From the NCBI GenBank assembly GCA_945869195.1, contig CAMBNV010000004.1, positions 62,001 to 126,000 of the forward strand: DNA of 64,000 bases, written 5' to 3'. The first letter of the stretch is position 1. The number at the start of each line of letters is the position of its first letter. The notes below the pieces were generated by a model. It saw only the letters and a list, made by a program, of their open reading frames with translations, ran no database searches and was not told the DNA's origin. This stretch comes from Gemmatimonas phototrophica. GTDB taxonomy: Bacteria; Gemmatimonadota; Gemmatimonadetes; Gemmatimonadales; Gemmatimonadaceae. Shown here piece by piece: positions 45,846 through 51,490 of this stretch. The translations under genes and the position numbers were made by a program.

Positions 45846-46451
45846 ATGGATCGCCCGTTCAGACATCGCGAGCCCGCGTCCACCGAATCGCTTGCTTCGA
45901 TCTTCCAGTCCGGCCAGACCTTCGCCGAAATGGTCCTCTCCGCCACTGCCCAAGCGGAGCTCTTCGCGTTCTTCCGCGCCCGAGCGGTCGCGGCGGTGGA
46001 GTACCTGGATCGGATCGGTGCGACACAACGTCGCTGGAATCTCCTGGCCATCAGCGAGGACTGGTGCGGCGACGCCGTGAATATCCTGCCGTGGATCGAT
46101 GCCCTCGACGCGAGCTCGGCGTTCGTGGAACTCCGCATTATCCCCCGCGACCAGCATCTCGAGCTGATGGATGCGCATCTCACCAACGGCCGCTCCCGGT
46201 CGGTCCCGATCGTGATCTTGCTCGACGATCAGTTCGTCGAACAGGCATGGTGGGGGCCTCGTTCGCTGGCGATGCAGCAGTGGTTTGAGACCCCCGAGGC
46301 GCAGGCGCTCACATCGGATGAGCGGTATAAAGAGCTCCGGACCCGCTACGCGCGCGACCGCGGCCGATCGATCCTCGAGGAGATCACGTCGATGCTCGAG
46401 TCGGTTGCCGCGTCCAATAGCGATTCGGCCATCGCGCAGGGCGCCTCGTAA
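45846..46451 (+). CDS. Thioredoxin-like family protein with EDWCGDA motif
   Basis: 201 residues, ATG 45846. A thioredoxin fold with a single-Cys active site, SEDWCGDAVN, cis-Pro loop RSVPIVILLDDQF and typical C-terminal helix RDRGRSILEEI match the Thioredoxin_9 family. The lone Cys suggests bacilliredoxin-like or structural use rather than dithiol exchange. The last 106 bp overlap the convergent helix-turn-helix gene, and the residues after ILEEI look like an unselected tail. Confidence 0.82.
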   Translation: MDRPFRHREPASTESLASIFQSGQTFAEMVLSATAQAELFAFFRARAVAAVEYLDRIGATQRRWNLLAISEDWCGDAVNILPWIDALDASSAFVELRIIPRDQHLELMDAHLTNGRSRSVPIVILLDDQFVEQAWWGPRSLAMQQWFETPEAQALTSDERYKELRTRYARDRGRSILEEITSMLESVAASNSDSAIAQGAS

Positions 46452-47308
46452 GCAAAGACGCGGTCCCGGGCGCGGCCCGTGACCTCACGCGCAAGAGCGA
46501 GCATCACGAGTCGCTCGACCGCGTCGTTCGCCGCCGGTCGCGAGAGCCCAAGCGCCTCGGCGAGCGAGGGGATTGTCGCGGAGAGTCGCTGACGCAGCAG
46601 CGCGAGTACGTCGCGCGCGGTAATCGCGGCGCGGCCGAGCGGGCGCAACGACTCGTCTTCACGCGCCGGCGCGTCGATCACCTTTTTCACGGCGAGTTGC
46701 GCCGCTCTGGCGCGTGTCGCCAATGCGCCAAGCGCGAGCGCCGTCCACTCGCCACTCTGTCCCTCGCGGTACGCGAGGAGGGCTGCGCTGCGTTCGGCGA
46801 CGTCATCGTCAGCAACACGCTCAGCGAACGGCAGAATACGGACACGATCGGTGCGGCCCCCTCCGCAGAGCAGGAGGGCCGCGCTCGCCTCTCCAACGGC
46901 CCGACTCGGGCTCCAGGCCGCCGAGTCGAGCGCGCGCTCAATCACGGACTGGCTCGAGTGCGACTCGCGCCAGATTGCTTCGAGACGATCTTTCTGAAAC
47001 GCCTGGTCACCCAGGAACGCAAAACAGGCCACCGTGAGCCGTGCGCCGCTGCGGGCACGCCGTTCTTCTGTGGTCATGAGTTCACGCCACGCGAGCAGTC
47101 CCGGCGAAAGCAGCGCGTCGTGCAGCGGATCGCCCTGCGCGGCGACCAGCGCGGCGAAGCTCGCAGGTGTAGGTTCCGCGAGTCCGGTGACGGCAAGAAA
47201 GATGAGGGCAATCTCGACTGAACGCGGCGCCAACGCGCAGGTCGCGTCAAGGCGACCGAGCTCGTCGGCTGCCTCTTCAAGTTGACGGCTCAGTTTATAT
47301 TGATACAT
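46346..47308 (-). CDS. Winged-helix protein resembling the Fic-protein C-terminal linker region
   Basis: 320 residues from ATG 47308 (47377 possible). The C-terminal 70 residues, IPSLAEALGLSRPAANDAVERL ... ALAREVTGRARDRVFAYEA, match the winged helix found behind Fic domains, and the middle (YREGQSGEWTALALGALATRARAAQL) resembles the Fic linker, but there is no HPFxxGNGR catalytic motif; GRTDRVRILPFAERV stands where it would be. It may be a Fic-derived DNA-binding protein, or belong to the related RHE_PE00001-like group. The 3' end overlaps the thioredoxin gene by 106 bp. Confidence 0.6.
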   Translation of the reverse strand: MYQYKLSRQLEEAADELGRLDATCALAPRSVEIALIFLAVTGLAEPTPASFAALVAAQGDPLHDALLSPGLLAWRELMTTEERRARSGARLTVACFAFLGDQAFQKDRLEAIWRESHSSQSVIERALDSAAWSPSRAVGEASAALLLCGGGRTDRVRILPFAERVADDDVAERSAALLAYREGQSGEWTALALGALATRARAAQLAVKKVIDAPAREDESLRPLGRAAITARDVLALLRQRLSATIPSLAEALGLSRPAANDAVERLVMLALAREVTGRARDRVFAYEAPCAMAESLLDAATDSSIDVISSRIDRPRSRA

Positions 47309-47450
47309 AATATTTAATGCCTTAATATTTGTTTTCAAATGTTTTTGTTCCAAATCTACCAGAACTGAATCAGGCATATAAACCAATTGAGTAATAATAA
47401 TGCGCTATAACTTGTTTATTGCAATACTAGTCTCTATTGCGGCTACCCCT
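47291..47450. other. Low-GC island covering two divergent gene starts
   Basis: By direct count 47291-47340 has 9 of 50 G/C and 47341-47400 has 18 of 60, against a GC-rich background. It includes the first codons of the Fic-linker-like gene, the 91-bp gap and the signal-peptide codons of the ChaN-like gene. TAATATTT occurs twice (47308-47315, 47323-47330). GC content rises within a few dozen bases inside both genes. Confidence 0.7.
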
Positions 47451-48380
47451 GCTTCCGCCCAGGCCAGAGCAGCCACTGCCGCCACCCAGGCCCGAGCTGC
47501 CACTGAGGTTGCCCACCCCATCGCCGGCTATGCCGCCCACCGCGTCTACGACACGAAGAAAAAGCGCCTGGTCGACTTCGAGGCGATGGCGGCCGATCTC
47601 GCGAAGTCCGACCTCGTCTTTCTCGGTGAGCAGCACGACGACGGGCGGACGCACCAACTTCAAGCCGCCCTCCTCGAGGCCGTCGCGCGCCGCCGGGCTG
47701 GACCGACCGTCCTCGCCCTCGAGATGTTCGAGCGCGACGTGCAGCCCGCGCTCGATGCCTATCTCGCGGGCACCTTGACCGAGGCCAACTTTCTCGCCGC
47801 AGCACGCCCCTGGCCGAACTACCGCACCGACTACCGCCCAATGGTCGAGTTTGCGCGGGCCAACGGATGGCCGGTCGTCGCGGGCAACGTGCCGCGTCGC
47901 CTCGCCTCGCTCGTCGCGCGGAGAGGGCTCGTCGCCCTCGACTCGCTCAGCGCCACTGACCGCGCCTTCGTCGCACAGGAGCTCTCGTGTCCGCGCGATG
48001 AGTACTGGAAGCGCTTCAAAGCCATCATGGGCGACATGTCCGGCCATGGCGTGACGCTCTCCGCCCAAGAGGCCGACCAGATGGTCTGGCGCACCTACGA
48101 AGCGCAGTGCGTCAAGGATGAAACGATGGGTGAGGCCGTCGCCGCAGCGCATGCACCGCGCGGGGCGCTCGTGATCCATCCCAATGGCGCGTTCCACTCC
48201 GACTATCGCTTAGGCACCGCCGAGCGCGCGGCGCGGCGCGCGCCTGGGGCGCGGATGCGGGTGGTGAGCTTCGTGCCGGTCGCCGATCTCGATGCGACCA
48301 ATGGAAAGACGCGGCGCAAGCTTGGTGACTACATCGTCTTCACCCTCGCGGCGCCGGCAGCGCCTACCACGCCGAACTAG
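47400..48380 (+). CDS. ChaN family exported protein (haem/iron-regulated lipoprotein fold)
   Basis: 326 residues, ATG 47400, signal peptide 1-21 (ends TPASAQ), then an Ala/Thr/Gln spacer. FLGEQHDDGRTHQLQAALL, LALEMFERDVQPALDAYL, YRPMVEFARANGWPVVAGNVPR and FHSDYRLGTAERAARR are the signature segments of the ChaN/Tiki-like haem-binding family. It probably handles haem or a peptide in the periplasm. The low-GC codons of the signal peptide contrast with the rest. Confidence 0.88.
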   Translation: MRYNLFIAILVSIAATPASAQARAATAATQARAATEVAHPIAGYAAHRVYDTKKKRLVDFEAMAADLAKSDLVFLGEQHDDGRTHQLQAALLEAVARRRAGPTVLALEMFERDVQPALDAYLAGTLTEANFLAAARPWPNYRTDYRPMVEFARANGWPVVAGNVPRRLASLVARRGLVALDSLSATDRAFVAQELSCPRDEYWKRFKAIMGDMSGHGVTLSAQEADQMVWRTYEAQCVKDETMGEAVAAAHAPRGALVIHPNGAFHSDYRLGTAERAARRAPGARMRVVSFVPVADLDATNGKTRRKLGDYIVFTLAAPAAPTTPN

Positions 48381-48410
48381 CTTTCTGCCACGGTTCATCA
48401 CGCACCAACA

Positions 48411-49382
48411 ATGACAAACTTCGCGTACCATCGCCCCTCGTCCGTACGCGACGCGCTCGCCGCGCTCGCCGAGAAGGGCACGCGCCCGATCGGCGGCGGC
48501 ACCGATCTCCTCCCCTGCATCGACGACGGGCTCGTCCAGCTTTCGCGCGTCGTCGACATCCGTGACCTGCCGGGCGCCAGCGAGATCGCACTGCGCGCCG
48601 ACGGCTCAGCGCGGATTGGCGCCGGGGCGCGTCTCGCCGACGTCGCCGCGCACGCCGGGCTGCGGGAGGCGTTCCCACTCCTCACCGACGCCGCGGCATC
48701 CGTCGGGACCCCCGCGCTCCGCCAGATGGGCACGATCGGAGGCAACCTCGGGCAGCGCGTGCGCTGCTGGTACTTCCGCCGTGGTGTCCGGTGCTTCAAG
48801 AATGGCGGCGGCGGGTGCGCGGCCGTCGCCGGGGAGCACGAGTACCATGGCATCATTCCCAGCGGCAGCTGCCACGCCGTGCATCCGTCCGATCCCGCCG
48901 TAGCGCTCGACGTGCTCGACGCGCGCATCGAGGCGACGCGCCCCGACGGCACGGTGCGGCAACTCAGCGTGGCCGAGCTCTACGCGGGCGCTGCGGCCAA
49001 CCCCACGGGCGAGATGACGATTGCCGACGACGAGCTTATGACCGCCATCGAGCTGCCGGCCGCCGCTGCCGGCGGCGCGCAACACTGGGAGAAGGTGATG
49101 CAGCGCGGTGCCTGGGACTTTGCGCTCGTCTCCTGCGCGGCCGCGCGGCGCACCGACAGCACGGTGCGGATGGCGCTCGGCGGTCTCGGCCTCGGGCCGT
49201 GGCGGATCGCGAGCTCGGTCGAGGAGGACGTCTGTTCAGGAGGACTCGACGAAGAGAGCATCGACGCCCTCGCCGAACGGGCGATGTACGACGCGGTGCC
49301 GCTGGAGCGGAACGGCTACAAGGTCGAGATCGCACGCGCGGTCCTACGTCGGGCCATGCGGGTGTTGGGTCCGACGGCGTGA
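48411..49382 (+). CDS. FAD-binding subunit of a xanthine dehydrogenase-family enzyme with an extra 4Fe-4S motif
   Basis: 323 residues, ATG 48411. Two FAD-binding motifs (PIGGGTDLLP and the TIGGNLGQR block) begin the CoxM-type fold. After NLGQR comes an insertion with four Cys, CWYFRRGVRC (C119, C128), C136 and C154, as in PaoB and 4-hydroxybenzoyl-CoA reductase beta subunits, which carry a 4Fe-4S cluster there. It completes the three-subunit enzyme started at 41979, about 3.6 kb upstream. The start is 30 bp after the ChaN-like gene, so it may be transcribed with it. Confidence 0.9.
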   Translation: MTNFAYHRPSSVRDALAALAEKGTRPIGGGTDLLPCIDDGLVQLSRVVDIRDLPGASEIALRADGSARIGAGARLADVAAHAGLREAFPLLTDAAASVGTPALRQMGTIGGNLGQRVRCWYFRRGVRCFKNGGGGCAAVAGEHEYHGIIPSGSCHAVHPSDPAVALDVLDARIEATRPDGTVRQLSVAELYAGAAANPTGEMTIADDELMTAIELPAAAAGGAQHWEKVMQRGAWDFALVSCAAARRTDSTVRMALGGLGLGPWRIASSVEEDVCSGGLDEESIDALAERAMYDAVPLERNGYKVEIARAVLRRAMRVLGPTA

Positions 49383-51095: not shown

Positions 51096-51490
51096 GGGAG
51101 CGCCAGAGAAGAGGGTGGATGCGTGCCCTACTTATGTTGTGTGGGTGCGAAATAAATCGCGCAAGGGGATCGTATCAATGGGACGTATCGAGTGTGGTTT
51201 AAACAACTCGTAACCATCTATATGTCAGCAGTTTACGCCTTACTTAACGTCGTTTGTTTATCGCTATTTCTGTGATGACTGTACGCCGAAAAGGCAGTTT
51301 TCGGAGCGCTCGCGCCAAGAAAAATCGACCGTGCCGAACTGCACCGCACCTCCACGAATCGCGAGAGTCCGTGTCGATAGAGCACTACCGGCCCGCGTAG
51401 ACCGAGAACCGCAGTCCAATCCTTTGATTGATGGTCAAATCCGACTAGATTGCTTGCATATCCCGCTGGGCCCCTGAACCTGCTGAATTA
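51096..51490. other. 395-bp non-coding region upstream of sufB
   Basis: It is less GC-rich than its surroundings (51201-51270 has 26 of 70 G/C by direct count). It contains a 7-bp perfect hairpin CCGAAAA/TTTTCGG (51286-51304) and an optional 17-residue hydrophobic peptide frame (51222-51275, MSAVYALLNVVCLSLFL) without a visible ribosome-binding site. The last 70 bp carry the putative suf promoter. No longer gene is seen. Confidence 0.6.
51424..51451 (+). promoter_or_regulatory. Putative suf operon promoter
   Basis: TTGATT (51424-51429), a 16-base spacer and TAGATT (51446-51451) form a weak sigma-70 type promoter 40 bp before the sufB ATG. An inverted repeat TTTGA/TCAAA (51423-51439) overlaps it, and TCCGACTAGATT resembles half of an Rrf2-family (IscR/SufR-like) site. 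No regulator gene is nearby. Confidence 0.35.

What the first reader, a model, noticed from the sequence alone, without database searches (positions are those of the whole stretch)
47291..47450. Sharp low-GC island spanning the starts of two divergent genes
About 25 percent G/C over 110 bp (27 of 110 counted) inside GC-rich DNA. It includes coding sequence on both sides: the signal-peptide codons of the ChaN-like gene and the first codons of the Fic-linker-like gene. Both 5' ends may have been replaced together by foreign DNA, or it is an unusually AT-rich regulatory region. A direct repeat TAATATTT is inside.
Basis: partly seen in the sequence, partly recalled or inferred. Interest (0 to 1): 0.55.

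Follow-up and report, generated by a model that had tools for sequence, protein, structure and literature searches.

The report
Ancestral AT-rich switch between two genes
The AT-rich patch is not borrowed DNA but an old, inherited control region, probably a two-site switch worked by a regulator that descends from Fic enzymes and has lost the enzyme's active-site motif.

Summary
In detail: 47292-47401 is 23.6% G+C, the lowest 110-bp window in 464 kb sampled from this genome (next 39.1%). Foreign replacement is rejected: all 15 congeners with the leftward gene ("wh") have an AT-rich island at the same place (27-41%), as do 14 of 14 usable loci of two other genera (17-39%). The island goes with wh, not ChaN: ChaN genes of GC-rich relatives without wh lack it, and one species keeps wh and island without ChaN. 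wh has the full Fic-plus-winged-helix fold (VIA Z 25), but 0 of 17 members match Pfam Fic, against 10 of 10 true Fic relatives. The island holds two imperfect dyads, aAAgnAaatTTA-N6-TAAattTncTTt, at the two gene starts: inverted half-sites 18 bp apart (0 of 400 controls), the dyads separated by about whole helical turns, 50-95 bp. Best reading, inferred: wh represses itself and controls the opposite gene by cooperative binding. CccR, a Fic-HTH autorepressor (PMC9755527), is the published precedent. Binding, transcription starts and the signal are untested.

The parts
47292..47401 (.). AT-rich island, minimum 110-bp window (23.6% G+C); divergent control region
   Evidence: shared by relatives
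47305..47334 (.). dyad O1, at the start of the leftward gene; 7 of 12 arm positions complementary in this genome
   Evidence: (matrix score 21.5, part of training)
47388..47417 (.). dyad O2, over the ChaN start codon and codons 2-6; 6 of 12 arm positions complementary in this genome
   Evidence: (matrix score 16.7, not in training)
47335..47387 (.). spacer between the dyads (32% G+C); dyads 83-84 bp apart, about 8 helical turns
46346..47308 (-). wh: Fic-fold protein without the Fic motif, with C-terminal winged helix; likely ATG at 47308, 320 aa
47309..47386 (-). open extension of the wh frame to TTG 47386; not conserved, probably not translated
47400..48380 (+). ChaN-family gene (PF04187) with N-terminal signal-peptide-like segment
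47309..47338 (-). promoter-like site for wh (TTGAAA, 18 nt, AATATT), consensus match only
47300..47328 (+). promoter-like site for ChaN (TTGATA, 17 nt, TAATAT), consensus match only; overlaps O1

Best explanation
The island is an ancestral divergent promoter-operator region. It holds two similar AT-rich dyads (each two 12-nt half-sites in inverted order, 18 bp apart), O1 at the start of the leftward gene and O2 at the start of ChaN. The most likely reader of the dyads is the leftward gene's own product, a Fic-fold protein that has lost the Fic motif and keeps the winged helix. It would bind as a dimer at each dyad; two dimers on the same face of the helix would cooperate or loop the DNA, holding down its own gene and the gene opposite until a signal releases it. 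Shown by computation here: conservation of the island, its association with wh, the fold, the dyads and their spacing. Inferred: that wh is the protein that binds, that binding represses, that the dimers touch, and that control of ChaN is the purpose.
For: Island in all 15 wh-bearing congeners and in 29 of 29 usable loci of three genera. Absent before 13 of 13 ChaN genes of the family and order without wh; present with wh but no ChaN in G035. Inverted half-sites 18 bp apart next to wh: z 4.8, 0 of 400 controls, 21 loci; the same 18 bp in a test anchored on the ChaN ATG, z 3.1, highest of 38 offsets, 15 loci. Leave-one-out matrix finds the second dyad among its top two sites in 14 of 16 congeners. 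Two best matrix hits in 463 kb of the own genome are O1 and O2. Genera not used in training: pooled best and second sites above all 300 local shuffles. Dyad spacing in phase with the helix: R 0.80, p 0.0003, 11 lineages; 0 of 1000 shuffled controls. Fic-wHTH precedent: CccR represses its own promoter through an AT-rich inverted repeat (PMC9755527); 10 of 11 true Fic-wHTH genes examined here have an AT-rich inverted repeat within 90 bp upstream.
Against: Near-perfect inverted repeats are not enriched in wh islands (16 loci, Fisher 15.2 on 32 df); in this genome only 7 and 6 of 12 arm positions pair. In g13 a direct-repeat matrix does as well as the inverted one. L005 has only a weak and L017 no second dyad. 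Much of O2 lies in ChaN's first codons, so its conservation can be partly coding. Loci are related, so control counts overstate independence; lineages were grouped by eye. The half-site consensus was set by hand after motif fitting. No regulon was found by pattern. Nothing links wh to DNA binding directly.
Confidence: 0.66

Rival explanations
1. Bent or easily melted promoter: the island is kept AT-rich for RNA polymerase or a general DNA-bending or nucleoid protein, and the dyad-like, helix-phased pattern is A-tract curvature rather than operators of a specific repressor.
For: Very AT-rich, with A- and T-runs; promoter-like sites on both strands (4 found, 0.3 expected from shuffles that spread the AT over the region); best spacing period 10.9-11.0 bp.
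Against: In the 464 kb sampled no other promoter region of this genome is like it; it goes with wh, also without ChaN; the inverted 18-bp arrangement exceeds shuffles that keep local composition, though such shuffles also break A-tracts.
Confidence: 0.2
2. Plain divergent promoter whose regulator is some other protein; wh is only a neighbour in a conserved gene order and acts elsewhere.
For: Binding by wh is inferred only; ChaN and wh sit in a conserved block, so association with the island could be inherited.
Against: Island and two dyads kept in G035, where ChaN is not beside wh; Fic-wHTH proteins have a published autoregulatory precedent (PMC9755527).
Confidence: 0.12
3. Recent joint replacement of both 5' ends by foreign AT-rich DNA.
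For: Composition is extreme for the genome.
Against: Island at the same place in all 15 wh-bearing congeners and in two other genera, with related motifs; no second copy in the genome.
Confidence: 0.02

Closest known systems
CccR of Yersinia pseudotuberculosis (N-terminal FIC domain, C-terminal HTH; autorepressor; PMC9755527, passages and the regulator section's first part read)
   Same: Fic fold plus C-terminal HTH; AT-rich inverted repeat at its own promoter; dimer needed for repression (paper).
   Different: CccR keeps the Fic motif and AMPylates FtsZ; its boxes are 10 bp with a 26-bp spacer at one promoter. wh lacks the motif; its half-sites are 18 bp apart, in two dyads at two opposite genes.
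Shewanella oneidensis Fic (SO_4266, PDB 3eqx; 3zcn) and Mycobacterium marinum FIC (7cb8)
   Same: Whole-length fold match: Z 25.2 over 291 residues (7cb8_A), Z 23.5 over 289 (3zcn_A).
   Different: wh lacks HPFxxGNGR and no wh member matches Pfam Fic or Fic_N.
Helix-phased two-operator repressors (lambda CI, AraC, Lac; recalled, no call)
   Same: Operators separated by about whole helical turns on a short control region.
   Different: Different protein family; cooperativity or looping is untested here.

Membership tests
Fic (Fido) AMPylase family, for wh | Fic fold | tested here: met
   AlphaFold2 model pLDDT 92; best solved matches are Fic proteins by Foldseek and VIA-align; profile match to true Fic proteins, probability 99.6 over 288 columns
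Fic (Fido) AMPylase family, for wh | HPFx(D/E)GNGRxxR active-site motif | tested here: not met
   Absent from all 17 rows of A1, invariant HPFLDGNGR in the 10 rows of A2; Pfam Fic and Fic_N match 0 of 17 against 10 of 10
Fic (Fido) AMPylase family, for wh | AMPylation or other transferase activity | not testable with these tools
   Needs an assay; loss is expected from the missing motif
Fic-HTH autorepressor (CccR-like) | C-terminal winged-helix DNA-binding domain | tested here: met
   MarR_2 or HTH matches in members of A1; fold matches over residues ~210-295
Fic-HTH autorepressor (CccR-like) | AT-rich inverted repeat at its own promoter | tested here: met
   As an imperfect dyad only: half-sites 18 bp apart; the test for near-perfect repeats was negative
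Fic-HTH autorepressor (CccR-like) | Binding to and repression of its own promoter | not testable with these tools
   Needs footprint and reporter assays
Recently acquired (foreign) AT-rich segment | Absent from relatives at the same site | tested here: not met
   Island present in 15 of 15 wh-bearing congeners and in 14 of 14 usable loci of two other genera

The most novel reading that the evidence does not exclude
A Fic enzyme lineage lost its active-site motif and became a dedicated repressor, kept in three genera, that holds two operators at two opposite gene starts; selection lets the distance between them change only by about whole helical turns (5 to 9 turns seen), so the two bound dimers must touch. 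The former Fic pocket would serve as the signal sensor.
Probability: 0.4. Interest if true: 0.62.

Novelty: new variant of a known kind. Interest (0 to 1): 0.47.

Why it matters
It turns a composition oddity into a testable control circuit in a poorly studied phylum. If true, it would be a Fic-derived pseudoenzyme turned into a transcription switch, and a natural record, across three genera, of operator spacing changing by whole helical turns. It also suggests that AT-rich inverted repeats before Fic-wHTH genes are common (10 of 11 examined), which would extend the CccR result.

Tried and rejected
Foreign replacement: rejected. RNA element: the Rfam search of 46000-49000 gave one hit, far below its gathering score. 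Leftward ORF from the TTG at 47386: rejected, extension not conserved. Second copy of the island in the genome: none at E 0.001. Near-perfect inverted repeats in wh islands: negative. Palindromic motif fitting beat shuffles strongly, but those shuffles spread the AT block over the flanks, and part of the g13 and ChaN-side fit is conserved coding sequence; I do not lean on it and used the offset tests and the untrained genera instead. Regulon: a pattern search of the whole genome with up to 3 mismatches gave O1 and one 3-mismatch site, with 4+4 hits of the control pattern; O2 itself is too divergent for that pattern; no regulon is claimed. Leaderless wh transcripts (a -10-like hexamer 6-8 nt before the start in some congeners): seen by eye, not tested. 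Literature: searches; CccR was the only Fic-HTH regulator I noticed in their listings, and I saw no motif-less Fic repressor and no report of this island there; other papers were seen as listings only, and most subscription papers are not held.

Rows left out or set by hand: the ChaN loci L105-L141 (37 loci, other phyla) are not used in the comparison, because many are low-GC genomes and show low values without wh (for example L109 0.164, L135 0.309); L069 was skipped there for lack of upstream sequence; several named loci (such as L068, L088) repeat genomes already among L019-L031, and L062-L066 repeat congeners. L056 was left out of alignment A2 (10 of 11 Fic loci used). In one search one of 30 fetched loci (L200) was too near a contig end, and 6 of the 36 matches were not fetched (one, G007, had been examined as L011). 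L207 (dyad region identical to L205) was left out of the motif calls. L003 and L013 were re-anchored by hand for and L002 shifted by one base; the offset tests used the automatic anchors. One search left out L005 and L017; one search kept them. An earlier count said the pair is in 15 of 16 congeners; the calls show ChaN in 14, wh in 15, both in 14.

Full report
What was claimed and what is there. It is by far the most AT-rich stretch of the window and of 464 kb sampled from the same genome, where the next lowest 110-bp window has 39.1%. Samples of three congeners held no window as low as their own island, by a small margin in two of them.

Genes. The right-hand gene is a ChaN-family gene (PF04187, E 2.7e-59) starting at 47400. 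The left-hand gene, here called wh, has a weak winged-helix match. Its open frame runs back to a TTG at 47386, but in relatives the upstream part differs and is broken by stops in most, while the part from about LEEAADELGRLD onward is conserved; the ATG at 47308 is the likely start. The island is then mainly the 91-bp gap 47309-47399 (25.3% G+C) plus about 9 codons of wh (33%) and 17 of ChaN (41%).

Relatives. The window lies in a 2.33-Mb genome that I infer to be Gemmatimonadaceae from the names of near relatives. Among 16 congeners, 14 have ChaN and 15 have wh; G013 has neither. In 14 of 14 with both, the genes are divergent neighbours and the lowest 110-bp window of the 3-4 kb locus lies between them, at 29-41% G+C. 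G004 has wh and an island at a contig end (27%). A profile search of 179 genomes of the family at E 1e-30 found wh in three genera, 35 genomes, 36 matches. Of the 30 loci fetched, 29 had enough flank (15 of the window's genus, 5 and 9 of the other two), and all 29 have an island of 17-41% next to the wh start, while the rest of each locus stays at or above 44.5%.

The island goes with wh. Before 13 of 13 ChaN genes of the family and order that lack wh (L019-L031) the lowest nearby window is 54.5-69.1%; in 36 named loci (L068, L070-L104, partly the same genomes, a few from other phyla) it is 46.4-65.5%. The 37 remaining loci of that call (L105-L141) are from other phyla, many of low G+C, and are not comparable. 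Conversely G035 has no ChaN match but has wh and a 30% island with a different small signal-peptide-like ORF on the other side. These groups are related by descent, so this is association, not proof.

What wh is. A profile of 17 wh proteins aligns with 10 true Fic proteins of the family and order at probability 99.6 over 288 columns. AlphaFold2 gives pLDDT 92. The best solved matches are Fic proteins: Mycobacterium marinum 7cb8 and Shewanella oneidensis 3zcn and 3eqx, by Foldseek and VIA-align (Z 25.2 over 291 residues, rmsd 3.1; Z 23.5 over 289, rmsd 3.4). Yet 0 of 17 match Pfam Fic or Fic_N while 10 of 10 true Fic relatives match both. The HPFLDGNGR stretch is invariant in the latter and absent from all rows of the former. 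So wh is a Fic descendant that has very probably lost catalysis, with its winged helix conserved (T277, G278, R281 and R283 invariant).

Dyads. Motif fitting pointed to a half-site of about TAAwATTnCTTw. I then asked where its inverted copy lies. With the half-site next to wh fixed by a consensus, its reverse complement is enriched exactly 18 bp upstream: z 4.7 against shuffles within 10-nt blocks, highest of 48 offsets, 21 loci; 0 of 400 controls reach it; 17 cluster representatives z 3.9; the genus alone, 14 representatives, z 4.6. The consensus and its weights were set by hand after the motif fits. A second test, anchored only on the 12 nt before the ChaN ATG, again peaks at 18 bp (z 3.1, highest of 38 offsets, 15 loci; no control for the maximum was run there). 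A matrix built from wh-side dyads alone, leave-one-out, puts a second dyad at or just inside the ChaN start among its top two sites in 14 of 16 congeners; L005 is weak and L017 has none. In 463 kb of the own genome the two best matrix hits are O1 (21.5, part of training) and O2 (16.7, not part); the next is 10.9. In this genome the arms are imperfect: 7 and 6 of 12 positions pair. In 13 loci of the two other genera, none used in training, the pooled best and second sites exceed all 300 local shuffles; in g20 the best site is reached by 0 and the second by 2 of 300, and direct-repeat versions of the matrix are not above control there (89 or more of 300), while the everted best site is reached by 17 of 300. 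In g13 the inverted matrix is at 0 of 300 for both sites, but so is one direct-repeat version, so the inverted order is not established in g13.

Phase. Distances between the two dyads in 11 lineages are 84, 85, 74, 74, 93, 95, 50.5, 62, 62, 71 and 73.3 bp, that is 8.0, 8.1, 7.05, 7.05, 8.9, 9.05, 4.8, 5.9, 5.9, 6.8 and 7.0 turns of 10.5 bp. R is 0.80 (p 0.0003); 0.78 (p 0.0011) with L196 and L197 merged; 0.81 (p 0.0053) in the genus alone; allowing any period from 8 to 13 bp, p is 0.0008, 0.0027 and 0.023. With all 13 groups and no exclusions R is 0.69 by group medians; by the first member of each group R is 0.78, reached by 0 of 1000 locally shuffled controls (there L006 takes another site at 60 bp and L017 scores below zero). 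Lineages were grouped by eye. This fits two bound dimers that must sit on the same face of the DNA; phased A-tract bending could also give it.

Precedent. Fic-wHTH genes of this family and order have their own AT-rich inverted repeats within 90 bp upstream: 10 of 11 at p up to 0.03, L056 not. CccR of Y. pseudotuberculosis, a Fic-HTH protein, binds an AT-rich inverted repeat in its own promoter by its C-terminal part; reporter activity was 3.3 times higher without it (PMC9755527; passages and the first part of the regulator section read). That makes autorepression the natural reading for wh. The same near-perfect repeat test is negative for wh islands (16 loci); their dyads are looser.

Mechanism proposed. 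wh dimers bind O1 and O2. O1 overlaps the wh start and the promoter-like sites found on both strands (consensus matches only); O2 overlaps the ChaN start and codons 2-6, which would explain why the low G+C reaches into both genes. Cooperative binding keeps both genes low until a ligand, perhaps in the former Fic pocket, releases it. Binding, repression, cooperation and the signal are inferred. A bent AT-tract promoter without a specific repressor remains the main rival.

Noticed in passing
L051-L061, within 90 bp upstream of Fic-wHTH genes: 10 of 11 true Fic genes with a C-terminal winged helix have a significant AT-rich inverted repeat just upstream, each with its own sequence; likely autoregulatory operators.
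   Followed up: partly
window 51169-51278: Second most AT-rich stretch of the window (39.1%), upstream of an ORF at about 51491 that by eye resembles SufB; possible regulated promoter.
   Followed up: no
window 46346-46451: The wh ORF and the convergent Thioredoxin_9 ORF (45846-46451, PF14595) overlap by 106 bp tail to tail.
   Followed up: no
L150:600-629 (G000:C3, about 150600): Third-best hit of the dyad matrix in the own-genome sample (10.9), about 90 bp before an ORF that by eye looks like a TonB-linked or carboxypeptidase-regulatory-like outer-membrane protein; may be chance.
   Followed up: no
L048 and L197 (G035): wh, island and two dyads kept, but the opposite gene is a small signal-peptide-like ORF followed by a xanthine-dehydrogenase-FAD-like ORF, not ChaN.
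   Followed up: partly
G013 (congener, 1.8 Mb, listed 100% complete): No match to ChaN or wh at the cut-offs used, consistent with joint loss.
   Followed up: no
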